Source: Acidimicrobiaceae bacterium (lineage in GTDB: Bacteria > Actinomycetota > Acidimicrobiia > Acidimicrobiales > RAAP-2). Taken from it: DNA of 64,000 nt. The notes beneath the pieces are model-generated. The model worked only from the letters and a program-made list of their open reading frames with translations, had not been told where the DNA came from and searched no databases. Shown here piece by piece: positions 35,229 to 46,357 of this stretch. The translations under genes were made by a program, and so were the position numbers. Each line of letters begins with the position of its first letter. The first letter of the stretch is position 1. The stretch covers positions 36,173 to 100,172 of the forward strand of contig PKWW01000070.1 in assembly GCA_003132165.1 (NCBI GenBank), read 5' to 3'.

Positions 35229-35322
35229 TTGACCCGCGCTGAGAAACGTCGCGAACACCGGCCCTCATTGCATTCCTGCACGTACTCACGCAGCGGCTCG
35301 ATCAGTGGGCGGTTTCAATCGG

Positions 35323-35358
35323 TCAGACGAGTCGCTGGATCTCGGAAATTCCTTCGAA
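35323..35358 (-). pseudogene. Remnant of an acyl-CoA dehydrogenase 3' end (left copy of direct repeat)
   Basis: The reverse strand reads FEGISEIQRLV and then stop, matching the FEGTSEIQRLV tail of the intact acyl-CoA dehydrogenase at 45 kb. Bases 35326-35358 match 45179-45211 at 30 of 33 positions in the same orientation. Nothing upstream or downstream of these 11 codons matches. It marks the left border of the accessory segment and may be an attachment-site copy. Confidence 0.6.
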
Positions 35359-35423
35359 CAAGAGTGATGAAGTCAACTGGATTCACTGATGGGCTACCTC
35401 GAAAGAGTGTCAGCGACCGAGTC

Positions 35424-36707
35424 TTACTTGGGCCGCGCCCGCTTCGTGCGCTTGGCGAATTGGTCCAGCGCTTCGATGACGTCCGTCGCCACCCATCGCC
35501 GGTTCCGACGACTCGCGGACGCTGTCACCAAGATACCCGCCTCGACCAATCGTCCGATTGCTACATCGGCCGCTTGCTGCGACACGCCGAAGCGGCTTTG
35601 CACCAGTGCCGAGTCAACCGCCGGCTGGCGCATGACAAAATCAGTCAAGCCCTCCGCCGTGGAGCCAGCGCGCGCCCTCAGCCTTTCCTTCCACTCCGAC
35701 TGGACCGATCGCAGTTCGCCGGCGAGTTGACGTCCGTTCTCAACAGCTCGATACGCGGCGACGGACATGAGGCTCACGATCGGCGCTGGGTTGCCGTCGC
35801 GGTAGTCGGTCAACGTCTGGAAGTATTGGTCGGGGTCGGTCAGAATGCCTGCCGACACTGGCACCGTGACATTGCGAGTGAGACCCGCGTGTCGATACAT
35901 CGCATGGATGAGTGCCCTACCCACGCGTCCGTTACCGTCGGGGAACGGATGGATCGTCTCGAACTGGGCGTGGGCCACCGCGGCGTGCACGAATGTCGCG
36001 ATGTCGGTGCGCTGGACGAATCTGACGAGGTCCACCATGGCCGCCGGTACTCGGTCTTGATGCGGGGGTACGAAGCTCGCGTCGTGTACGGAGTATCCAC
36101 CAATGCGAACTTGTTCCTTGCGCCAGTGCCCCGTCCACTCCGGGTGGCTCCCGGCCAGGAGAACCGCGTGCATGGCGATGATCGAGTCTTCGTCGATGTG
36201 ATCGGCTAACTCAAGGGCCCTGTCCATCGCCGCAGCGTTGGCAACGATCAACGATGCGTTCTTTCCCACGCGATCGTCGCCGATGCCAGCGAGAGCGACG
36301 GACTTCGCGCCCGCTGTTAGGTTCTCGATCTCAGAGGACGACGCCGACTCAGATCGTAAGAGTATCGCCGCGAAACTGGCGAACTCCCCGCTCAATTCGG
36401 CGTCGAACCGGGCGATTTCAGCTGCGGCCTCAGACGCGTCAGCTAACACGTCACTGGGCACGTCGACAGTCGTAACGTCGGCGATTTCTGGAACAACGGC
36501 CGCGTAGTACGGCTCTCTCTCCGGGTGGCGCTTGCCTCGTGGGACGAAGCCGTCGACTTCGTCCTCATCGAGATAGCGTTCCTCGTAGGTGATCGCCGGC
36601 CAGTCCCTAGACGACTCCGGCGCCAACGGTATGTGGGACTCTTGATTAGCATCGTTGGCGAATTGACCGCCTTGATTGCTGCTCCTTGGTTCACGGTTCC
36701 TGTTCAC
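35424..36707 (-). CDS. Fic-family protein, probable AMP-transferase with N-terminal inhibitory helix
   Basis: About 427 residues from the GTG at 36705-36707; the track ATG at 36764 falls inside an operator-like repeat and is doubted. The Fic active site is HPFPDGNGRVGRALIH (about residue 260). An SxxxEN motif in SSEIENL, ahead of the Fic core, matches the inhibitory-helix signature of class II Fic proteins, so the enzyme is probably self-inhibited. A winged-helix-like domain ends the protein (VSQQAADVAIGRLVEAGIL). Fic enzymes usually AMPylate target proteins; the target is unknown. It is the first gene inside the accessory segment. Confidence 0.9.
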   Translation of the reverse strand: MNRNREPRSSNQGGQFANDANQESHIPLAPESSRDWPAITYEERYLDEDEVDGFVPRGKRHPEREPYYAAVVPEIADVTTVDVPSDVLADASEAAAEIARFDAELSGEFASFAAILLRSESASSSEIENLTAGAKSVALAGIGDDRVGKNASLIVANAAAMDRALELADHIDEDSIIAMHAVLLAGSHPEWTGHWRKEQVRIGGYSVHDASFVPPHQDRVPAAMVDLVRFVQRTDIATFVHAAVAHAQFETIHPFPDGNGRVGRALIHAMYRHAGLTRNVTVPVSAGILTDPDQYFQTLTDYRDGNPAPIVSLMSVAAYRAVENGRQLAGELRSVQSEWKERLRARAGSTAEGLTDFVMRQPAVDSALVQSRFGVSQQAADVAIGRLVEAGILVTASASRRNRRWVATDVIEALDQFAKRTKRARPK

Positions 36708-36735
36708 GGATTCATCATACACAAGATTGTTATAT

Positions 36736-36769
36736 TTTCCTTGTGTATGGATACTGGAACACAAGGAAA
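36736..36769. promoter_or_regulatory. Operator-like inverted repeat upstream of fic
   Basis: TTTCCTTGTGT and ACACAAGGAAA form a perfect 11-bp inverted repeat with a 12-base spacer. On the reverse strand a third half-site (CTTGTGT) follows, and TATAAC between them resembles a -10 element. The arrangement suggests an autoregulated fic promoter and supports a fic start downstream of it, at the GTG at 36707. Confidence 0.6.
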
Positions 36770-36964
36770 TCTGAAGACCGCCGCCTGATCTCGATCTTCG
36801 TGACCACCGCTCCCTGGCCGGAAAGTCCCTAATCAGGCTTGCTGTACCGAACCCGATTGAAGAAGGCGTCCGAAATCTCCCACAGCCGGTACTGACCCTC
36901 TTCGCCGAAATGTGGATCTTCCTCAGCGCGTTTCAGTAGTAACTAGGTGCGAGTTCACATCACG

Positions 36965-36996
36965 GGCCCGACGCAACAGATCTAATGGGTCTGGAC
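36965..36996 (+). repeat. Dispersed intergenic repeat, copy A
   Basis: GGCCCGACGCAACAGA followed by TCTAATGGG, 3' of vapC. The 13-mer GGCCCGACGCAAC recurs at 37744 and 42094 only, always in gene-free DNA of the accessory segment; ATCTAATGGG recurs in copy D. Confidence 0.6.
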
Positions 36997-37028
36997 AGCG
37001 AATGGATTGCGGCCTCGATCAACTGATT

Positions 37029-37406
37029 TCAGTAGGGCTTCCTCAGGTCAGCGAACATCGGAAAGTGCTTGACGTTGCAGGTCAGAAGTTGGCTTCCGAT
37101 GACCATCGCAGTGGCGGCGATTGCCAAGTCGGCGCCATCGATCGAACGATGACTCGGTAGCCACCTTCGACCCAGTTCACCAGCCCGCTCAGCGATTAGG
37201 GCATCGACTGGGTGCCAATTGAAAATGGAGAGGAGCGCTCGCGTGCCGCCCTCTTCGTTCGACCTCATGCCGGCGAGAACTTCGAGACGCGTCATCTCAC
37301 TTGCGTGCAGAGGCGAATTCAACCTGGCGCTTTCTAGAGCCTCCTCGGCGCCATGGTGACCTCGGAGAAAGTCGACGATGACCGACGTGTCAACCAGGAC
37401 AGTCAT
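37029..37406 (-). CDS. vapC: VapC-type PIN-domain toxin
   Basis: Ribonuclease toxin of 125 residues. PIN-domain acidic residues are visible in LVDTSVIVDFL (first Asp), RLEVLAGM (Glu) and DGADLAIAATAM (Asp). VapC toxins cleave tRNA or rRNA when the antitoxin is lost. The ATG at 37404-37406 overlaps the antitoxin stop by 1 bp (TGATG); the track uses a GTG one codon earlier. The antitoxin-first order is standard for vapBC. Confidence 0.92.
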   Translation of the reverse strand: MTVLVDTSVIVDFLRGHHGAEEALESARLNSPLHASEMTRLEVLAGMRSNEEGGTRALLSIFNWHPVDALIAERAGELGRRWLPSHRSIDGADLAIAATAMVIGSQLLTCNVKHFPMFADLRKPY

Positions 37407-37657
37407 CACTCAGCGCGCGAGAGGCGCGATCCCGTGCGAAGTCTCTCGACCATTGCGGCGCCGTCTTCCTCACGATCAGTCCACGTGCCGAAAGCCTGAC
37501 GCATCAGATCAAGGTCATCGGCGCTGGACCGTGACACTCCGTAGACCCGCTCGACCGCGTCTCTGATGAGCGCCGAGAGCGACTTGCCAGTACGCACAGT
37601 CTCGGCGTCGAGCGCCCGGCGCTCCTCGGCCGTGAGCGAAATCTGCGTTCTTTGCAT
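37406..37657 (-). CDS. vapB: VapB-type ribbon-helix-helix antitoxin
   Basis: Antitoxin of 83 residues; the ATG at 37655-37657 is preferred because MQRTQISLTAEERRALDAE is the typical ribbon-helix-helix beginning. The ribbon strand and SLSALIRDAVERVYG helix should form the DNA-binding dimer, and the C-terminus (about 45-83) should wrap the toxin. An 8-bp inverted repeat covers the start codon and is a likely self-binding operator. Confidence 0.88.
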   Translation of the reverse strand: MQRTQISLTAEERRALDAETVRTGKSLSALIRDAVERVYGVSRSSADDLDLMRQAFGTWTDREEDGAAMVERLRTGSRLSRAE

Positions 37658-37675
37658 GATGTAAGTATACATCAT
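37656..37675. promoter_or_regulatory. Operator palindrome at the vapB start
   Basis: ATGATGTA-AGTA-TACATCAT is a perfect 8-bp inverted repeat with a 4-base spacer overlapping the vapB start codon. Ribbon-helix-helix antitoxins autorepress by binding such sites. Confidence 0.65.
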
Positions 37676-37743
37676 CCTAGTTGGACGTGTTCTTAAATCA
37701 CCGATTTCTGAGTTCATCCCGAACCCCCTCTACCACTGTTGGT

Positions 37744-37806
37744 GGCCCGACGCAACGGACGCCCTTGGCACTGACGGCTCGGCCCGGCGAAATTCTGATC
37801 GGTGTC
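37744..37806 (+). repeat. Dispersed intergenic repeat, copy B
   Basis: Begins with the shared GGCCCGACGCAAC and ends in ATCGGTGTC. GACGCC and GGTGTC within it can pair (one G-U). Copies B and C agree at both ends over about 60 bases. It lies upstream of vapB, so vapBC sits between copies A and B in direct orientation. Confidence 0.55.
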
Positions 37807-37925
37807 GGAAGTGCCAACGAAGGCAAAAACCTACGTGCGATTCAAGGCTCCCGATTCGTTACGGCAAAGCAAGGGGACATCGGTCGACGGTTTTCGTCTT
37901 GGGACATGGCCGGCGGCCACGCCCC

Positions 37926-38543
37926 CTACGCCAGGGGCACGGAGCGACCCTCGACGGGGGTGACTTCGAATCTCCGCCCTACTGCGCAGACGTCGATGCT
38001 TACGGCGAACTCTTCCGAGAACAAGTGCGAGAGGCGCGCGGGAAGGCGGAAGTCGATGAACTTGGCGAGACAAGTCGCGGCTTCGGTACTTGGTGGTACT
38101 GCATCGCTGGTGTTGTAACTGATGCCAAAGGACGCGACGCCACCGGGGCGCAGCACCACTCGCTGGGCTTTGGGCTGCGCGTACAACGTTGTTCGTTGGT
38201 GCGAGATCGAGACCTTCAGGCTCTCGCCGCCCTTGGTGGAGAAGATGATCTCATAGGGGTAGCCACGCAGCTCGCATGATTTGGGACCCGTGTTGACGAT
38301 CAAGAACGTGTATCCATGCGCGTAGTGAGCCTGCAAGCCGCCGCCTTGCTCGATGGCGGTCTGTAACTGTGCCTGCATGCATTCCCCAACGCTGGAAGTG
38401 GAATGGGATGGTCTGCTCGACTTGGTGATCGACCACGTCACAATCGCCGAAGCCGTCGCGACAATGATCAACACAAGTAAGGCTATTCCGAAGCGTTCCT
38501 TGGTCGTCACGTTGGCAACGTTAGGCCTTTGTTGGAGGTTCAT
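37926..38543 (-). CDS. Membrane-anchored DUF4232 protein
   Basis: A 205-residue protein with one N-terminal membrane helix (FGIALLVLIIVATASAIVTW) and an extracytoplasmic DUF4232-like domain (LQAHYAHGYTFLIVNTGPKSCELRGYP, then LRPGGVASFGISY). DUF4232 domains are common in actinobacterial lipoproteins and secreted proteins; their function is not known. Four cysteines in the domain could form two disulfides. The neighbour at 38724 contains the same domain type on the opposite strand, and the two starts face each other. Confidence 0.75.
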   Translation of the reverse strand: MNLQQRPNVANVTTKERFGIALLVLIIVATASAIVTWSITKSSRPSHSTSSVGECMQAQLQTAIEQGGGLQAHYAHGYTFLIVNTGPKSCELRGYPYEIIFSTKGGESLKVSISHQRTTLYAQPKAQRVVLRPGGVASFGISYNTSDAVPPSTEAATCLAKFIDFRLPARLSHLFSEEFAVSIDVCAVGRRFEVTPVEGRSVPLA

Positions 38544-38723
38544 CCGTTTCGATCTTGGTGCAGACGCTGGGAATCAAGTGGGGAGGCTCAACGCCGACCC
38601 TCAGAGACCAGCAGTCGTACGGCGAAAGGATTTTCGCAAGCCTCCCGAATTGAAGCCGGGGGCTGTAAACGCGAGCTCGCGTGCAAGCATGAAAGGAGGC
38701 TCGCTGAAATGAAGGAGATCTCA

Positions 38724-40868
38724 ATGAAGAAGTGGTCAGCGGTAATCGTCACCGTGAGCTTCGTTGCGTCGCTGTTTGTTGCACCGACAGCGACAGTTGC
38801 GTCGGCGACCACGGCCCCGGCCTGCGCGCCGAAGCAGCTCACGGTCACTGCGGGAGCCTGGGCGTACAACCCGAGCACTGCGGGAACGGTGTTCCAGACG
38901 CTGCCCATCTCCATTACCAATGAGGGCGGCACTTGCGTCGTTGGTGGGTTCCCAAAGTTAATCCCGACCGGCATCAAGGTCACCCACAAGACCAGCGGCG
39001 AAGCGGTCGACGCACTCGTCGAAGGTGCGGCCATCAGCGCAACGAAATACAAGATGCTGACGCTCTCGCACGGTAAGGCGGCCTACACCTACCTGAACCT
39101 CGTGTACCCCATTGGAGATGCCAGCACGGTGAAGAAGTGGACCAACTCCTGCCAGCCCGCTGGCGCCACGGGCTTCACCATCAGCATCGTCCCAGCTAAG
39201 AAGCTCTTGAACCGTCACGTCAAAGCGACGATCCCCAAGGTCTGCACAACTGGCAACGCGAACGACCTAAGTACCGGGCCGCTGAGCTCGACGTCAAACG
39301 TCGCTCACGTGACGCGCAGTACCCCGCTCACGGACACGACTCTCGGTGCCGGAACGCAGATTGACGTGATTGACATGCTGTCGTCGGCGCTCGGCTACGC
39401 GGTCGCGTCTGGCTCGGGAAAGGGACCAGCTCTCTACTATCTAGTTCGTACCACCAACGTCGGCAACTCCTGGACGGTGCTGGGCGCACTCCCACTCGCC
39501 GCATTCACGGCAGCGTCAGCCAACGGCCGGTGGACCGTGCCGTCGATCCACTTCGTCAATGCGAAGGTCGGCTACGTCTCGGTGACGGACGGACCGCTCT
39601 TCGTAACCGACGACGGCGGCACCACGTGGTCCAAGGTCAAGACGCCCGGAATCTGGCCGACCTACGAGATATCAGCCAACACGATGTTCGTCGCGAGTGA
39701 CGTCTGCACCGCGAATCTACCGGCCTACGGTCCGCTCCAATGCCCGAGCTATCTCTCGCAGTACCGCGTCGGGACGACCACGCCTACAAAGATCTCGATC
39801 ATTCCCGGCGTCGGCGTCGGCAAGTGGCGCGCGGCCGTTGTCCTGGACGCGCTGTCGTCGACCACGGCGGTGGTCGTCGAAGGTGGTACCGAAGGATCTC
39901 GGTCGTCACTGCTCGCCACCGACAACGGTGGCGCCAGTTGGCGCCAGTTGAGCGATCCTTGCGAGGGACTGATGGTGGATCAATTGCTCACCCACGACCC
40001 CGGTCGATGGCTCCTCTACTGCTACATGGGCGGCGGCATGAATCAAGGGTCGAGCGAGCTCTGGCGGTCGAGCGACGGTGGCCACTCATGGTCGATCGTC
40101 GCGAAGAGCACCGAGGGCGGGATCAACATCGGTGGCATCGGCGACGTGTCGAACATGCTCTATTTCAACAACGAAGGAACGATCTACGGAGCGCTGGGCG
40201 GTGCCGCGGGAGGACTTGAGTACAGCAGCGATCTAGGAGCGCACTGGACTCGAACCAATATCACGACCAACATCTACGGCGGCGCGCCCGAGTACGTATC
40301 AGTGTTCGACGCCGCGGGCGCGATCTTCGGGATTGAGGACGGCCCGCAGTACCGGACCAGCAACGGCACGAAGTGGAGCGAATTGCCGGAACTGCCCGCC
40401 GGCAAGTACAAGGGACACTCAATCTGCACGTCGAAGCGTGGCACCACGGTACTTCTCCACAAGGCCGTGACCAGTATCCCGGCGGGCACTCTCGACTACC
40501 CGGTCGATTTCACCAACGATGGCGACGTCGCCTGCTATCTCAACGGCATTCCCATCGCGCAACCCGTCGCCGGCCCCGACCGGCGTCCGATCGGGCAAGC
40601 GGCGTACCCGGCCGGGTCCAGCGGCCGAGGAGGCTTGGTGATTCTGAAGGCTCACACTGGGGTCGCGAGCATCGTCCTCGAGAGTGACGCCGCTAGCGGC
40701 TATCCGCGCAGTTACTGCATTCCTAAGACCATGACGGGCCTGGTAGTTCGCTTCAACCCACCGGCCACGTTTTATCTGTCAATGCCCAGACGAATGGTCT
40801 GCTCGGGCGTGTCCACCGTCCGCAATAGTGGCGTGGTCGTCGGCGTGTCCACGTGGCTCGGCGAGTAG
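38724..40868 (+). CDS. Secreted protein: DUF4232 - YCF48/BNR-like propeller - DUF4232
   Basis: Exported protein of about 714 residues. The ATG at 38724 has GGAG about seven bases upstream and is followed by a signal peptide (KKWSAVIVTVSFVASLFVAPTA, cleavage near ASA). Residues about 30-175 resemble DUF4232 (TLPISITNEGGTCVVGGFP). The middle (about 190-580) has repeated SxDxGxTW-type motifs (VTDDGGTTWSKV, ATDNGGASWRQL, SSDGGHSWSIV) of a YCF48/BNR beta-propeller. The C-terminus is a second DUF4232-like domain (YPVDFTNDGDVACYLNGIP). It may bind cell-surface glycans or peptides; no catalytic site is evident. Confidence 0.8.
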   Translation: MKKWSAVIVTVSFVASLFVAPTATVASATTAPACAPKQLTVTAGAWAYNPSTAGTVFQTLPISITNEGGTCVVGGFPKLIPTGIKVTHKTSGEAVDALVEGAAISATKYKMLTLSHGKAAYTYLNLVYPIGDASTVKKWTNSCQPAGATGFTISIVPAKKLLNRHVKATIPKVCTTGNANDLSTGPLSSTSNVAHVTRSTPLTDTTLGAGTQIDVIDMLSSALGYAVASGSGKGPALYYLVRTTNVGNSWTVLGALPLAAFTAASANGRWTVPSIHFVNAKVGYVSVTDGPLFVTDDGGTTWSKVKTPGIWPTYEISANTMFVASDVCTANLPAYGPLQCPSYLSQYRVGTTTPTKISIIPGVGVGKWRAAVVLDALSSTTAVVVEGGTEGSRSSLLATDNGGASWRQLSDPCEGLMVDQLLTHDPGRWLLYCYMGGGMNQGSSELWRSSDGGHSWSIVAKSTEGGINIGGIGDVSNMLYFNNEGTIYGALGGAAGGLEYSSDLGAHWTRTNITTNIYGGAPEYVSVFDAAGAIFGIEDGPQYRTSNGTKWSELPELPAGKYKGHSICTSKRGTTVLLHKAVTSIPAGTLDYPVDFTNDGDVACYLNGIPIAQPVAGPDRRPIGQAAYPAGSSGRGGLVILKAHTGVASIVLESDAASGYPRSYCIPKTMTGLVVRFNPPATFYLSMPRRMVCSGVSTVRNSGVVVGVSTWLGE

Positions 40869-41105
40869 ATGGAAACGATCATCGGCCACCGTCCCCGAAT
40901 TGGCGGCAGTAGCCACCTGCAGACGAAACTTCGATGGGTCCCCGCAGCCCAAGAATAGGCCTCATTTCGGACCGCCAAACTCTATGGTGGGATCGAGTCA
41001 GAAAGTCTGCGCGCGTTGGAAATGAATTGGTGACCTGCGCTGGGTTTTGTTACCCAATTGGTCTCCAAGAAACCCGGCGCGATTCACTAAGCCATTATTA
41101 TTTAC

Positions 41106-41792
41106 ATGATCATGACCACACCACCGACGTCGCTGATACTAATTCACGGCTTCGCATCATCGTTTGAACATAATTGGCGGCGCACTGGGTGGGTTGATAT
41201 TTTGGCTGACTTCGGTTGCGATGTCCCGGCCATAGATTTGCCAGGTCACGGCTCGTCAATTCGTTCGTCGAGCCCAGACGCGTACGAGGACGTTGAAGGT
41301 CAACTATTCGACATGATTCCGAGATCGCCAGCGATTTGTGCCGTTGGATTCTCGGTAGGGGCGAATCTGCTGTTACGCATGGCAATCGCTCATCCCGACG
41401 CTTTTGCGAAGATTGCGCTACTGGGGATTGGCGACATGATTTTTGAAAGTGACGATCCGAGCCGAATGGTTCAGGCGTTGATCGGTCCCGAGGAGCCCGA
41501 GGACATCCAGGCACGCCTGTTTCGTGGGATGGCGTCATCATCGGGAAATGATCCCTATGCGCTGGCTGCATTTCTTCAAAGGAGCCAACACCCTCTGCAA
41601 GAAGATCAATTGTCAAAGGTGAAGTGTCCTGTCCTCGTGGTTCTTGGGGACCGAGACATGTCGAAGAGCGCCGACCGACTCGTCGCCGCATTGCCTTCGG
41701 CGACCTTCACGAGCCTGGCTGGAGTCGATCACTTTGCGACCACATCTGATTTTGCTGCCATCGACGCCGTTATGAGGTTCTTTGAATTTTAA
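41106..41792 (+). CDS. Alpha/beta hydrolase
   Basis: Serine hydrolase of 228 residues. The oxyanion segment is LIHGFASSFEHNW, the nucleophile elbow GFSVGANLL (Ser near residue 78), the acid in VLGDRDMS and the base in GVDHFATT. The size and lid-poor architecture suit esterases or C-C bond hydrolases; the substrate is unknown. The start may be the ATG at 41106 or 41112. AT content is visibly higher than in the flanking core genes, fitting its place in the accessory segment. Confidence 0.85.
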   Translation: MIMTTPPTSLILIHGFASSFEHNWRRTGWVDILADFGCDVPAIDLPGHGSSIRSSSPDAYEDVEGQLFDMIPRSPAICAVGFSVGANLLLRMAIAHPDAFAKIALLGIGDMIFESDDPSRMVQALIGPEEPEDIQARLFRGMASSSGNDPYALAAFLQRSQHPLQEDQLSKVKCPVLVVLGDRDMSKSADRLVAALPSATFTSLAGVDHFATTSDFAAIDAVMRFFEF

Positions 41793-41948
41793 ATGAACTT
41801 GCGCATGTCATCGCAAGCCTCACACGCGTACCTATGAACGGTGTTAGGCATCTCCATTTAACCAGAGGAATCTAGATCAGCAATCCGCCAGGGGCGGTCC
41901 GTCGGCGGGCGGCCCAGGCTGGGCGGATGACCTCTCGTCCGGGGTGGA

Positions 41949-42065
41949 ATGAGCGATACCTTCCGTGGTCGGCGGCTTGCGACTACGTGGAATCACGTCG
42001 GCATGGTCCTCAACTTTGTTGGCCTGGGCGTCCTTGTGTTCTGGCTCCCGCGTAAGAGGGATTAA
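41949..42065 (+). CDS. Possible small single-pass membrane protein (38 aa)
   Basis: Too short for the ORF track. It begins MSDTFRGRR, with a hydrophobic stretch VGMVLNFVGLGVLVFWLP and a basic end PRKRD, a plausible membrane microprotein. Only a weak GGGGTGGA precedes the ATG, and no homologue is recalled. Confidence 0.28.
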   Translation: MSDTFRGRRLATTWNHVGMVLNFVGLGVLVFWLPRKRD

Positions 42066-42093
42066 CGACTGCTTAGAATGCGTAGCCCTCGCT

Positions 42094-42158
42094 GGCCCGA
42101 CGCAACAGACACCTTCCACTGGCTTAACCCGGCCAAGACCTGCTCGGTGTCGCGGGCC
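42094..42158 (+). repeat. Dispersed intergenic repeat, copy C (hairpin-forming)
   Basis: Starts GGCCCGACGCAACAGACACC and ends GGTGTCGCGGGCC. Outer arms GGCCCG/CGGGCC and inner arms GACACC/GGTGTC pair perfectly, with an 8-base bulge on one side and a loop of about 32 bases. It is the clearest hairpin in the family. Confidence 0.55.
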
Positions 42159-42638
42159 GACGCCACAGAAAGGCAGCCAGCACTGGAGACTTCGTCTGCT
42201 CGACGCCGAGCCTTACGCGAGCGAAGCGAGAACAGTGCCGCCCATTCTGGGGTGAGGTGATTTCCAACGCCTAGTGAAAGGGGAAAACTGCCTCGATGCG
42301 AGAGCCATCGCTCGACCAGACGACCTTGCAGGGATGGTGACCCGGCGCCGCCAAGCGAAAGCGGATCCCCTCCGCGGTTGTGAGCGCGCTCGAGCGCGAT
42401 TGAGCCTGGGCGGAGTGAGCGAGCACAAACTCAGAGACGTCAAGCAGCGCATCGTAGAGGTCGGAGCCCCGACGTGACTCTCAGATGCCACTTGTTCGTA
42501 AATGCCACCTCACACTGGCGACACATTGATTGGAGTAGCACGCGCTGAGAGAGTTCCGTAGCGTCCACGACCAATATGAATCTCGGCCAGCAGTGCCGTC
42601 TTGGTCGAGAAGTGCGCTCCCCATCACACGGTGAGAAT

Positions 42639-43934
42639 CTACGCCAGCGGCCTCCTCAATGGATTCTGAACTACCAGCAGAGCGGTCGAAACGGGCCGCT
42701 CGTTCCCGTGAGAGGAGCTATCAAACACGTGCCCCTTCGCATAGAGAGTTGTGGACTCGCCGCCATCAAGGTCAAGAGCGGTCACTACGTTGAGAGACTG
42801 GAGCAGGTTGACGAGCTGGCGGGCGGTGGCGCCGGATTTGCCATCCTTGCCGGCGACAGTCATGAGGACCATCTCGCCCGACGCCGTCCAACCGATGACG
42901 GTCCGTGCATAAGGCTTGGCCATGGTGGTGTCTGCGGGAGAAATTGGTTCAACTGAGCCATGATCGAGCAGGATTGGGTGGCCTCCAATACTGTCGCAGC
43001 CGGCGGTGGAAGTCGTTGCCATGTTCACGATGTCGCCAGTCTGCAAGGTTGCGAGCGCTGATCTCGTATACGCGGAGATGTCGACCTGTCCGGTGATTAC
43101 CTTCACTGCCCGCGTCGTCTCGGCCACCAATTCGAGTCCGGTCGTCGTATTGATTGTCGTTGGACTGACGGAGGTATCGACTTGAGCGAATTCGTACGTG
43201 ACCCGCCCCGACGCGGACGGGATTTGCAATGCGTAGGGAGGGGTGTAGAGCAGGGTCCCCGCCAATGGGAGATGGAACTTCACGTTCGACATCGGTAGTT
43301 CGAGATTGATGGCGGTGATCGGTACGCTGACGCCGTTGACGTCGACGGTGCTACTCCAGTTGAGGCCCTCGCTGACGGACTGTGCATCGAGATTGGCCTG
43401 CTGGTGCGCGATCTCCGGGGTATGAAGAATGACGCAGTTCTGAATGATCCCGCCCACCTCGTCGCCGGGGTCGGGCACACCACGGTTCGTCACGTCAAAA
43501 TAGTCACCGTTGACGGCCGCCACACAACCAACTGTGACCTTGCACATGGTGCTGGGAGTCTGACGACCTCCGTCGATGGATTGGTTGGCGATGTCAATCT
43601 TCGTCGTGTACTGAGACCCATTGAACTTCAGGACGTGAATTGCGGTGGACACGCCATACCGGCGGCCGTTCATTGCCACTACGTGGAGCCCATTCGTACT
43701 GGTCCTGCCCGAAGAAGTCGGGGTGACCGCTGCTGCTGCGGTGACGATGGAAAGCGGTGCTTCGGTAACCGGTGCCACGCCCATCATTGCGACAAGAACA
43801 GCGGCGACGGCCGCCGTGCGCCAACAGCGACCACCAGTCGCCTTTCGCGAATCTCCATGTGGCGGCGAAGACCCGCGAAAGAATGGCGTCCTTGGAGTGA
43901 GACTCACGTCCTCACGATAGGTCGGCGTTGACAT
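42639..43934 (-). CDS. Secreted phosphodiester glycosidase family protein (NAGPA/DUF2233)
   Basis: Protein of about 431 residues from the ATG at 43932-43934 (the track start is 13 codons earlier). It has an N-terminal export segment (RTAAVAAVLVAMMGVAPVTEA) and the NAGPA/DUF2233 domain: VGCVAAVNGDYFDVTNRGVP, then VIGWTASGEMVLMTVAGKDG and VTALDLDGGESTTLYAKG, all hallmarks. Relatives remove GlcNAc from phosphodiesters in animals and act on cell-wall polymers such as teichoic acids in bacteria. The substrate here is unknown. Confidence 0.85.
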   Translation of the reverse strand: MSTPTYREDVSLTPRTPFFRGSSPPHGDSRKATGGRCWRTAAVAAVLVAMMGVAPVTEAPLSIVTAAAAVTPTSSGRTSTNGLHVVAMNGRRYGVSTAIHVLKFNGSQYTTKIDIANQSIDGGRQTPSTMCKVTVGCVAAVNGDYFDVTNRGVPDPGDEVGGIIQNCVILHTPEIAHQQANLDAQSVSEGLNWSSTVDVNGVSVPITAINLELPMSNVKFHLPLAGTLLYTPPYALQIPSASGRVTYEFAQVDTSVSPTTINTTTGLELVAETTRAVKVITGQVDISAYTRSALATLQTGDIVNMATTSTAGCDSIGGHPILLDHGSVEPISPADTTMAKPYARTVIGWTASGEMVLMTVAGKDGKSGATARQLVNLLQSLNVVTALDLDGGESTTLYAKGHVFDSSSHGNERPVSTALLVVQNPLRRPLA

Positions 43935-44099
43935 GTCGTCAGCATCACAAGACTCGCGAACTTTACCTATCAATGTGGTGGCGGCGCCGAGTGAAAGTAA
44001 TGGTTTTCATCGGTCAGGTGTCTCGGAGTATCAGGGGGCCGATGTCCACAACCTCATACCGGAGACTGGCGGTATGGTCAGTTTGAGTAGGTTGGATTG

Positions 44100-44267
44100 A
44101 TGGGAACAAGGGCAGCCGTCGTGCTTTACGTGATCGCGCTGGTAGCCGTCGTGGTCACCGTGGACGTCCTGTTCTTCCGCCACCACATCTTGGAGCGACT
44201 GATGGCAAACGTCGGAATTGTCCTGGTGTTCGCGGCGTTCTATTTGACGTTCCTGAAGCGTCCATGA
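44100..44267 (+). CDS. Small two-helix membrane protein (55 aa)
   Basis: Below the ORF-track cutoff. The 55 residues start MGTRAAVVLYVIALVAVVVT and continue with a short basic loop (FFRHHILERL) and a second helix (VGIVLVFAAFYLTFL), ending KRP. The pattern resembles small actinobacterial membrane proteins with an RH..ERL loop between two helices; the function is unknown. The ribosome-binding site is weak (GGATTG). Confidence 0.6.
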   Translation: MGTRAAVVLYVIALVAVVVTVDVLFFRHHILERLMANVGIVLVFAAFYLTFLKRP

Positions 44268-44406
44268 GCGCAGTCACAAGAATGCGGCTCATCTAGCTCC
44301 TCGGCGATGCTAAACCAACGCTCGTCAGGCGTAACAACTGTTTCCTCTCAGGAAACGTAAAGAACCCGTAGACGCGTACCGGCATGCCTGCAAAAACGGC
44401 AATGGC

Positions 44407-44438
44407 GGCCCGACGTGCACAATCTAATGGGAGGACTC
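44407..44438 (+). repeat. Dispersed intergenic repeat, copy D (partial)
   Basis: GGCCCGACGTGCACAATCTAATGGG shares GGCCCGACG with copies A-C and ATCTAATGGG with copy A; it is diverged between them. Confidence 0.4.
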
Positions 44439-44512
44439 TGGAGCAGATACCGTTGACAACTCGCGCTGAACGGCGCGTGCCAATTGGTTGTTTCTCGCCC
44501 TACGATGAAGCC

Positions 44513-44794
44513 ATGAGCTCATCGGAGAAGCCAGCAGAAGATTCAACCACACCACCGGTTGAGGCTTTTCTCGCACAGCCCGCCTACCACGCAAGCGAGG
44601 ACTCTGCTCGCGAACCTTTGGCACCGAAGCCAAACTACGTTGTCGTGGGGAGTTTCTGGCAGCGCTTCCGGCATCGATTTACTCACTTCATGTTTGAGAA
44701 GGAACCGGGACAGTCGTCGTCAATCTCTCCGCGAACCTCCGATGGCAAGAGAACCAAGATTTTCTTCTTCAACGGTAACGGTCGTGGCCGATAG
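44513..44794 (+). CDS. Hypothetical small protein (93 aa)
   Basis: The ATG at 44513 (MSSSEKPAEDSTTPP) is more natural than the track start at 44384. It has an acidic, Ser/Pro-rich N-terminus, then FWQRFRHRFTHFMFEKEPG, an amphipathic aromatic-basic helix, and a Lys-rich end with IFFFNGNGRGR. No signal peptide or known domain. It lies near the right edge of the accessory segment. It could be a real lineage-specific gene; evidence is only moderate. Confidence 0.4.
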   Translation: MSSSEKPAEDSTTPPVEAFLAQPAYHASEDSAREPLAPKPNYVVVGSFWQRFRHRFTHFMFEKEPGQSSSISPRTSDGKRTKIFFFNGNGRGR

Positions 44795-45142
44795 GTTCGG
44801 AGTTCCTGGAAGCTAGCGATCTGTCAAGACAGTTAGTCTCCGAAACTGAATGCGAGCGTGATCGATCACGGTTCACGACTTGATCGATGTCGAAGACCCG
44901 ACGTGAACCCGCACTCTTTGGTTTCGGGTTCACTCTGTGGGCGCGACCGAAAAAGTGGGCCTCGAGCTTACTAACCGAGGACAGACGTCACCGGACCGAT
45001 CGCGCTCGTTCGACTTGTGAGGTTGACTCGTAAGCCGCCTCACAAACTCAATTACTTGGGCGAGTCAGCGCAGCCACAATGGGAGCCGCCAGAGAAATCA
45101 GCATTGTCTGAGTTAACGAAAAGCTAGTGACTATTGGCTTCG
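44795..45142. other. Gene-free interval at the right edge of the accessory segment
   Basis: About 350 bp with no ORF I can support. It contains a 14-bp perfect palindrome at 44857-44870, which chance alone could produce in 64 kb. Confidence 0.55.
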
Positions 45143-46357
45143 CTACTGGATACGAATCCCCGAGATCGCTCGGCTGATGACGAGTCGCTGAATCTCGGAA
45201 GTCCCTTCGAAGATCGTGTAGATCTTCGAGTCGCGGTGCCAGCGCTCGACGGGGTAGTCGCGCACGTAGCCGTAGCCGCCGAGGATCTGAATCGCCTCTT
45301 CGGTGACCTTGACCGCGGTCTCACCGGCGTAGAGCTTGGACATCGAACCCTCACCGTTCAGGAATGGCTTGCGGGTCGCGGCCATCCACGATGCACGCCA
45401 CACCAACAGGCGGGCGGCGTCGATGTGCATCTTCATGTCGGCGAGCTTGAACGCGATTGCCTGGTTTTCGATGATGGCCTTGCCGAACTGCTTGCGCTCT
45501 TTGGCGTACTCGAGCGAGTACTCATAGGCGGCACGTGCGATGCCGAGCGCCTGGGCGCCGACGGCCGGACGGGTCGCCTCGAAGGTGGCCATGGCCGCCT
45601 GACCCGACGCCTTCTTGCCCTCGCGCACACGCGCCAGCTTCTCGTCGAGCTTGTCCTTGCCACCGAGCAGACAGGCACCCGGGACACGACAGTCCTCGAG
45701 GATGACTTCCGCGGTGTGCGAGGCACGGATGCCCATCTTCTGGAACTTCTGTCCCATTCGGATTCCCTTGGTGCCTTCGGGCACGATGAACGACGCCTGC
45801 CCACGGCTGCCGAGTTCGGGGGCGACCGAGGCGACGATGACGTGCACGTCGGCGATACCGCCATTGGTGATCCAGGTCTTCGTACCGTTCAGCACCCACT
45901 CGTCGGTCGCCTCGTCGTAGACGGCGCGCGTGCGAAGCGATGAGACGTCGCTACCGGCGTCGGGCTCGGAGACACCGAACGCGGCGAGCTTGATGTCGTC
46001 GGGCGTCCCGAAGCATCGCGGCACCCACTCCATCTGCTGCTCGGGGGTGCCGTTGGCCATGATCGCCGCGACGCCGAGGGTCGTACCCATGAGTGCCATG
46101 CAGATACCCGCATCGCCCCAGGCGAGCTCTTCGAGCGCGATCATCATGGAAAGGCCGGTCTTGTCGGCGAAGGCGTTGGCCATGAAGTCCAGGCCGTAGA
46201 TGCCGATCTTCGCGGCCTCTTCGATGATGGGCCACGGCGTCTCTTCGCGCTCGTCCCATTCGTGCGCGGCGGGGCGCATCACATTGGCGGCGAAACCGTG
46301 CACCCATTCCTGCAGTGTCTTCTGGTCGTCGTTTAGTTCCATTGAGAATTCGGTCAT
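45143..46357 (-). CDS. Acyl-CoA dehydrogenase
   Basis: FAD-dependent enzyme that oxidises acyl-CoA and passes electrons to ETF. The 404 residues are full length. Visible features are GVSEPDAGSDVSSLRTRAV (FAD/substrate region), WITNGGIADVHVIVA, and the C-terminal signature GGYGYVRDYPVERWHRDSKI followed by FEGTSEIQRLVISRAISG. The ATG has GGGGGA just upstream. The last 33 bases of the signature are repeated at 35326-35358. Chain-length specificity is not determinable. Confidence 0.94.
   Translation of the reverse strand: MTEFSMELNDDQKTLQEWVHGFAANVMRPAAHEWDEREETPWPIIEEAAKIGIYGLDFMANAFADKTGLSMMIALEELAWGDAGICMALMGTTLGVAAIMANGTPEQQMEWVPRCFGTPDDIKLAAFGVSEPDAGSDVSSLRTRAVYDEATDEWVLNGTKTWITNGGIADVHVIVASVAPELGSRGQASFIVPEGTKGIRMGQKFQKMGIRASHTAEVILEDCRVPGACLLGGKDKLDEKLARVREGKKASGQAAMATFEATRPAVGAQALGIARAAYEYSLEYAKERKQFGKAIIENQAIAFKLADMKMHIDAARLLVWRASWMAATRKPFLNGEGSMSKLYAGETAVKVTEEAIQILGGYGYVRDYPVERWHRDSKIYTIFEGTSEIQRLVISRAISGIRIQ
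45179..45211 (-). repeat. Right copy of the 33-bp direct repeat bordering the accessory segment
   Basis: Lies inside the acyl-CoA dehydrogenase 3' coding region (FEGTSEIQRLV). It matches 35326-35358 in the same orientation with three mismatches, 9.85 kb apart. Confidence 0.7.

What the first reader, a model, noticed from the sequence alone, without database searches (positions are those of the whole stretch)
36965..44438. Dispersed intergenic repeat family (GGCCCGACGCAAC) confined to the accessory segment and flanking vapBC
A 13-mer occurs three times (36965, 37744, 42094), plus a diverged copy at 44407, always on the same strand and always in gene-free DNA. Copies B and C agree at both ends over about 60 bases and copy C folds into an imperfect hairpin with arms GGCCCG/CGGGCC and GACACC/GGTGTC. 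Copies A and B bracket the vapBC module 0.8 kb apart. Hairpin repeats separating small accessory genes resemble cassette recombination sites in logic, although the attC core motif (GTTRRRY) is not visible. This could be an undescribed cassette-type or mobile repeat.
Basis: partly seen in the sequence, partly recalled or inferred. Interest (0 to 1): 0.62.

Follow-up and report, generated by a model that had tools for sequence, protein, structure and literature searches.

The report
Gene-cassette arrays anchored at a tRNA
The short repeat is the joining site of a mobile gene-cassette system in peat-bog Acidimicrobiaceae: like an integron it strings single accessory genes into arrays and swaps them between species, but its site is not an integron site, its main arrays start at a leucine tRNA gene, and the recombining enzyme is still unknown.

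Summary
The repeat is real and part of a large family. The 13-mer is the core of a discrete ~53-bp site with 28 strong copies in this MAG and up to 71 per genome in its genus (uncultured peat Acidimicrobiaceae); it is almost absent elsewhere. Sites form same-orientation arrays (6 of 322 off-strand), spaced ~0.7-0.9 kb, usually holding one accessory gene (GNAT, APH, methyltransferase, toxin-antitoxin). In 13 of 13 checked genomes with sites near tRNA-Leu(GAG), the array lies downstream of its 3' end in one orientation, and one end of the site matches that tRNA end (GCCTCCGACACCA). Homologous blocks between species end at sites (48% of ends against 13% by chance). Sixteen are exactly one cassette; several are 90-93% identical where the core is 68-78%. 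Breakpoints map to the tRNA-like 13 bp. So these are mobile gene cassettes with a dedicated recombination site, integron-like in logic, but attC motifs, an integron integrase and a conserved hairpin were sought and not found. tRNA-anchored additive islands are already described, so this is a new variant. The recombinase is unidentified. The window's copies lie in a second hotspot, at the 3' end of an acyl-CoA dehydrogenase gene.

The parts
36960..36989 (+). Site A, short variant (GGCCCGACGCAACAGATCTAATGGG); bounds the vapBC cassette
   Evidence: (E 0.015)
37029..37717 (-). Cassette cargo: PIN toxin (37029-37409) and RHH antitoxin (37406-37717), VapBC-type
   Evidence: Pfam PF01850 E 2e-12 and PF01402 E 5e-5
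37735..37785 (+). Site B, full 53-bp site; followed by a truncated second unit up to ~37811
   Evidence: E 8e-8
37926..41792 (.). Cargo between B and C: DUF4232 gene (37926-38543 -), BNR/DUF4232 gene (38709-40868 +), alpha/beta hydrolase (41106-41792 +)
42089..42123 (+). Site C, first unit of a tandem pair
   Evidence: E 5e-6
42146..42195 (+). Second unit of the tandem pair behind site C
   Evidence: E 3e-8
42459..42522 (+). Site split by a ~20-nt insertion; bounds the NAGPA cassette
42639..43973 (-). Cargo: phosphodiester glycosidase (NAGPA) gene; the segment 42512-44065 is shared with species G029 (83%) and G005 (78%), in G005 as one segment between two sites
44407..44431 (+). Site D, short variant (GGCCCGACGTGCACAATCTAATGGGA)
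44886..44906 (+). Weak site fragment (GATGTCGAAGACCCGACGTGA)
   Evidence: E 0.06; may be chance
35326..35358 (.). Duplicate (33 bp, 91%) of the 3'-end region of the acyl-CoA dehydrogenase gene: far border of the accessory segment
   Evidence: (D18)
45143..46357 (-). Acyl-CoA dehydrogenase (ACAD) gene whose 3' end borders the hotspot holding the window's sites
   Evidence: slot is 33 bp wide in G079

Best explanation
The repeat is the recombination site of a mobile gene-cassette system. Each cassette is one 53-bp site plus usually one accessory gene; a site without a gene is an 'empty' unit of about 69 bp. Cassettes insert by site-specific recombination within the 13 bp GTCGGGCCTCCGA (tRNA sense), which the site shares with the 3' end of tRNA-Leu(GAG). 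Insertion beside that tRNA leaves the tRNA intact and pushes older cassettes outward, which builds same-orientation arrays; cassettes also move singly between species. Shown here: the family, its arrays, the tRNA anchoring, the single-cassette exchange and the position of the breakpoints. Inferred: circular intermediates, insertion at the tRNA-proximal end, and a tyrosine recombinase acting in trans (an integrase of the satellite type found at tRNA-Leu in G029, G075 and G009, or the housekeeping Xer pair), because arrays carry no recombinase of their own. The window's copies are a small, decayed array inside an island in a second hotspot, between a TetR gene and the 3' end of an acyl-CoA dehydrogenase gene.
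For: Discrete conserved block of 53 bp with sharp edges. 28 strong copies in G000; 42 of 61 genus genomes, up to 71 copies. Same strand within 54 loci except 6 of 322 sites; gaps of 16-34 bp between tandem units and a median of 731 bp overall; 102 of 175 inter-site segments hold exactly one called gene; one site lies inside a called gene. tRNA-Leu(GAG) heads the array in 13 of 13 genomes with sites downstream of it, always in one orientation; in G017 and G066 a 69-bp-type unit follows the tRNA directly. The 13-nt tRNA end matches at >=11 positions in 141 of 227 sites, 0 in shuffles. 48% of ends of interspecies homologous blocks lie within 60 bp of a site against 13% at random; 16 blocks are exactly one cassette and none spans two. 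Identities such as 93.2% (G000/G017) or 91.3% (G000/G012) against 75% and 68% for core DNA beside the tRNA. Homology flips from one side of the site to the other across positions -8 to +5 (right side 9 of 9 non-tied pairs). Cassette contents (GNAT, APH, methyltransferase, glyoxalase, NUDIX; 112 Pfam families among 150 ORFs) resemble integron cargo.
Against: Gene orientation is nearly random (103:87). The left-side breakpoint test alone is weak (7 of 10 pairs). The inner 38 bp is not significantly tRNA-like (p 0.18). Array genomes are fragmented MAGs, one per species. No excised circle was looked for.
Confidence: 0.75

Rival explanations
1. It is an integron that lost its integrase (CALIN): the sites are divergent attC sites mobilised by an IntI elsewhere.
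For: Array layout, uniform site orientation, single-gene cassettes and cargo types are integron-like.
Against: RYYYAAC...GTTRRRY occurs in 3 of 227 sites, as in shuffles. No conserved fold or covariation. No integrase above the IntI cut-off in 22 genomes, and none at E<1e-40 in 99 genus genomes (no positive control in the latter). Cargo genes point both ways. The site matches a tRNA end instead.
Confidence: 0.06
2. The arrays are remnants of repeated insertion of ordinary satellites or islands at tRNA-Leu(GAG) (accretion); the repeats are displaced tRNA 3' ends and the cargo is what is left after deletion. No dedicated cassette system exists.
For: Satellite-like elements with integrase, AlpA-like, DUF3631 and terminase genes do sit at tRNA-Leu in G029 and G075 (and beside a partial tRNA copy in G009), leaving displaced tRNA 3' halves. 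Such accretion at ssrA is described in Dehalococcoides (PMC3146451).
Against: True displaced tRNA halves here are 58-68 nt copies of the tRNA, whereas the 322 sites share a 38-bp part that is not tRNA and has its own consensus. Cassettes are exchanged one at a time at this site. Sites and arrays also occur away from tRNA-Leu.
Confidence: 0.15
3. The segments spread by homologous recombination between repeats or flanks after DNA uptake; the repeat itself is a passive element such as a terminator, REP or MITE.
For: Sites lie between genes and contain a GTCGG/CCGAC palindrome.
Against: Sites agree only ~60-80% over 53 bp, poor substrates for RecA; neighbouring DNA outside the cassette is not homologous; site strand is uniform while gene strand is not, so sites do not follow transcription; no T-run and no conserved fold.
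Confidence: 0.04

Closest known systems
Additive flexible genomic islands built from gene cassettes inserted at tRNA genes ('Ca. Actinomarinales', PMC7771536; 'Ca. Methylopumilus' fGI-2, PMC10872708)
   Same: Cassettes added next to a tRNA; a repeat of the tRNA 3' end marks each insertion; evidence of cassette transfer between genera in Actinomarinales.
   Different: There the repeat is described as part of the tRNA itself. Here the tRNA part is ~13 nt inside a 53-bp site with its own 38-bp consensus, copy number reaches ~70, cassettes are mostly single genes, empty units exist, and arrays also lie away from the tRNA.
Mobile and chromosomal integrons, and CALINs (attC cassette arrays)
   Same: Arrays of single-gene cassettes separated by like-oriented recombination sites; similar cargo; TA modules; exchange of single cassettes.
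   Different: No attC motifs or fold, no IntI, no strand bias of genes, a tRNA 3' end in place of attI.
ssrA-specific islands of Dehalococcoides (PMC3146451)
   Same: Tandem elements downstream of a tRNA-like gene, each bounded by a repeat of its 3' end with an extra conserved motif beside it; some elements lack an integrase.
   Different: Those islands are multi-gene and many carry a serine recombinase module; here units are ~0.7-0.9 kb and no module was found.
Tycheposons
   Same: tRNA-anchored cargo elements that differ between related strains.
   Different: Described as 4-200 kb elements with a tyrosine recombinase (PMC10872708, citing the original work); here one-gene units without one.

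Membership tests
Integron / CALIN | attC site with RYYYAAC ... GTTRRRY | tested here: not met
   3 of 227 sites on either strand, shuffled 1.6-1.9
Integron / CALIN | attC folds into a conserved imperfect hairpin | tested here: not met
   RNAalifold predicts 0 pairs; the 5-bp palindrome has no two-sided changes
Integron / CALIN | Integron integrase IntI (dispensable for a CALIN) | tested here: not met
   TIGR02249: none over cut-off in 22 genomes, only Xer-like and phage-type hits; none at 1e-40 in 99 (no control rang)
Integron / CALIN | Array of like-oriented sites separated by small cassettes | tested here: met
   6 of 322 sites off-strand; most segments hold one gene
Integron / CALIN | Cassette genes mostly in one orientation | tested here: not met
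   103 against 87
tRNA-anchored additive cassette island | Anchoring at a tRNA gene with a repeat of its 3' end at each unit | tested here: met
   13 of 13 genomes with sites near tRNA-Leu; 13-nt end, >=11 matches in 141 of 227 sites
tRNA-anchored additive cassette island | Units gained and lost between relatives | tested here: met
   tRNA-Leu 3' flank differs between species; single cassettes shared at different positions
Tycheposon | Tyrosine recombinase encoded in the element | tested here: inconclusive
   None consistently within arrays; G083:C222 has one ~0.7 kb from a site, at a contig end
REP element with RAYT | Conserved palindrome | tested here: not met
REP element with RAYT | RAYT transposase in the genome | not tested
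CRISPR array | Repeats with constant short spacing | tested here: not met
   Gaps from 16 bp to over 3 kb, median 731 bp

The most novel reading that the evidence does not exclude
A non-integron cassette platform: a lineage-specific 53-bp site and an unidentified recombinase use the 3' end of tRNA-Leu(GAG) as the fixed insertion point (the counterpart of attI) and build and shuffle arrays of tens of single-gene cassettes, a separate evolutionary solution to what integrons do.
Probability: 0.35. Interest if true: 0.85.

Novelty: new variant of a known kind. Interest (0 to 1): 0.7.

Why it matters
Integrons are the standard model for storing and shuffling single genes as cassettes. Arrays of the same logic, with a different site, no recognisable integrase and a tRNA as the anchor, would show that cassette capture arose more than once, and would explain much of the accessory gene content of an uncultured peat lineage (site number rises with genome size, rho 0.75). 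The defined site makes the recombinase a searchable, testable unknown.

Tried and rejected
Protein-coding origin: one reading frame of the site is open and reads LVSEARRNRSATLHWRL with more synonymous change than expected (p 0.01 in 1 of 6 frames). Not adopted: the p-value is marginal over six frames, flanks are not coding, and the tandem neighbours reading 'SEAGLEP' proved to be antisense tRNA. Site as a degenerate tRNA 3' half: alignment beyond the shared end is not significant (p 0.18). Integron integrase, phage-type tyrosine integrases linked to sites (one exception, L193) and serine recombinases gave no consistent candidate. Viral contigs: no exact match to two site patterns and no relative of the tRNA-Leu integrase. 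Two of the off-taxon pattern hits (Planctomycetaceae L139, Variovorax L172) match only the pattern and are taken as chance. The 'Acidobacteria' contig L133 matches a contig of genome G097 of this genus by coordinates, so its name is probably wrong. Literature searches with integron and tRNA-cassette terms found no description of this site.
Full report
Observation. The 13-mer GGCCCGACGCAAC is at 36965, 37744 and 42094 on the + strand with a diverged copy at 44407, all between genes. The 13-mer with mismatches is not above chance in the window, but it is the core of a longer family. In the window's genome (G000, a 2.3-Mb MAG of 71 contigs) exact copies are clustered, and a profile from them shows a ~50-bp element, TTGGTGTCGGAGGCCCGACGYRACAGNNNTGCMACCTTGCAYTGGCGRCTT, recurring every ~1 kb on one strand. 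Information content is confined to about -17 to +35 around CCGACG, with no conserved flank.

What the window's copies are. B (37735-37785) is a full site followed by a truncated second unit. C is two tandem units (42089-42123 and 42146-42195). A further site at 42459-42522 is split by ~20 nt. A and D are a short variant found in other arrays as well (L020:3355, L066:6463, L075:10400). The hairpin noted for C pairs the beginnings of two neighbouring units. No structure is conserved in the family.

Distribution. G000 has 28 strong copies. 42 of 61 genomes of the genus have sites, up to 71; 24 genomes of other families in the order have none. In a family-wide sample, sites were found in two of 21 genera, the second with one genome. 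Named records are mostly Acidimicrobiaceae MAGs labelled palsa, bog or fen; that these come from Stordalen Mire is my own recollection of those labels. Viral contigs have no exact match to two site patterns.

Arrays. In 54 array loci, 322 sites are nearly all on one strand within a locus (6 exceptions). Gaps have a median of 731 bp, and 48 of 268 are under 40 bp, nearly all 16-34 bp (tandem units of ~69 bp). Of 175 segments of 150-3000 bp, 102 hold one called gene, 38 none and 35 more than one. Genes point both ways (103:87). One site lies within a called gene. My gene caller is simple and codon-usage based, so these counts are approximate. Cargo is diverse: GNAT acetyltransferases, DUF4232, APH phosphotransferases, methyltransferases, glyoxalases, NUDIX and others, and TA pairs such as the window's VapBC-type pair and a Phd-type antitoxin gene directly after the tRNA in G000.

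Anchor. tRNA-Leu(GAG) heads arrays: in 13 genomes where sites lie downstream of it on the same contig (G000, G012, G014, G017, G018, G021, G023, G034, G036, G066, G072, G074, G081) all are in the same orientation relative to it. The tRNA ends in GCCTCCGACACCA, and in tRNA sense the site ends in GTCGGGCCTCCGACACCA; 141 of 227 sites match the 13-nt end at 11 or more positions, 0 in shuffles. In G017 and G066 a unit with the site follows the tRNA directly. The inner 38 bp is not demonstrably tRNA-derived.

Movement. Blastn between arrays of different species gives blocks that start and stop at sites: 48% of ends within 60 bp of a site against 13% at random. Sixteen blocks are exactly one cassette in both genomes and none covers two. 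Several pairs are far more similar than core DNA: G000/G017 93% against 75%, G000/G012 91% against 68%, G000/G029 89% against 72%, G017/G029 91% against 78%. One high pair, G029/G075 at 98.7%, is between close species (95%) and is not evidence of transfer by itself. For ten full-length shared cassettes in different contexts, homology lies to the right of the first site and to the left of the second, and switches within -8 to +5, TCGGAGGCCCGAC (9 of 9 non-tied pairs on the right, 7 of 10 on the left). This places the exchange point in the stretch shared with the tRNA end.

Mechanism. Shown: a site, arrays, an anchor and unit-wise exchange at one point of the site. Inferred: site-specific recombination of excised cassettes, with insertion at the tRNA. 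The enzyme is unknown. There is no integron integrase above the model's cut-off (one search agrees but had no positive control). Nearly all genomes have a Xer-like pair; phage-type integrases are present but sit mostly at other tRNAs. Satellite-like elements with integrases of one family (P0001, P0002) sit at tRNA-Leu in G029 and G075, and in G009 beside a partial tRNA copy. They are the best candidates to act in trans: the family is more frequent in site-rich genomes (12 of 18 against 5 of 19, p 0.016), but genome size is a confounder. In G083 one such integrase lies ~0.7 kb from a site.

The window locus. The accessory segment lies between a TetR gene and an acyl-CoA dehydrogenase gene. In G079 these are 33 bp apart; in other species the slot holds up to ~14 kb, with sites in G063 (5), G075 (2) and G023 (1). 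The 3' end of the dehydrogenase gene is duplicated at the far side in several genomes, in the window at 35326-35358. So this is a second insertion hotspot, at the 3' end of a protein gene, which carries a small, diverged cassette array.

Comparison. Gene cassettes added at tRNA genes and marked by a tRNA repeat are known as additive flexible islands, including in 'Ca. Actinomarinales' (PMC7771536) and in 'Ca. Methylopumilus' (PMC10872708); tandem ssrA islands with repeats are known in Dehalococcoides (PMC3146451). Against these, the dedicated 53-bp site, the single-gene units, the empty units and the integron-like array size are the new points. It works like an integron but fails the attC, fold and integrase tests. 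I therefore file it as a new variant of tRNA-anchored cassette islands.

Limits. The data are fragmented MAGs with one genome per species, so gain and loss within a species was not seen; no circular intermediate was tested; the breakpoint map rests on ten pairs.

Noticed in passing
window 35229-45142; L297-L311: The slot between a TetR gene and the 3' end of an acyl-CoA dehydrogenase gene is an insertion hotspot across the genus (33 bp in G079, up to ~14 kb elsewhere), with copies of the gene's 3' end at the far side.
   Followed up: partly
L226 (G029), L227 (G075), L229 (G009): Satellite-like elements at tRNA-Leu(GAG) or beside a partial copy of it: integrase, plus in some AlpA-like, DUF3631 and terminase small-subunit genes; in G029 and G075 a displaced tRNA 3' half lies ~9 kb away.
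   Followed up: partly
G000:C68:101426-101863: A fragment of the same integrase family lies on the window's contig just beyond the window's end.
   Followed up: no
G025:C40:61603-62046: A large serine recombinase lies ~1 kb from tRNA-Leu(GAG) in a genome without sites.
   Followed up: no
L022:614-2730 (G000): A two-gene pair that looks like IS21 istA/istB (by reading, not searched) has interrupted a cassette whose intact relative is in G012 (L071:6079-7870).
   Followed up: no
Antisense tRNA sequence reads as 'SEAGLEPTRP', and the site reads as 'SEARRNRSATLHWRL' in the same frame; automated annotation could produce spurious short proteins from these sites.
   Followed up: no
L136 (CAJCJA010000055.1): A contig labelled Saccharibacteria carries at least three genuine sites; probably a misnamed Acidimicrobiaceae bin, but its taxonomy was not checked.
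   Followed up: no
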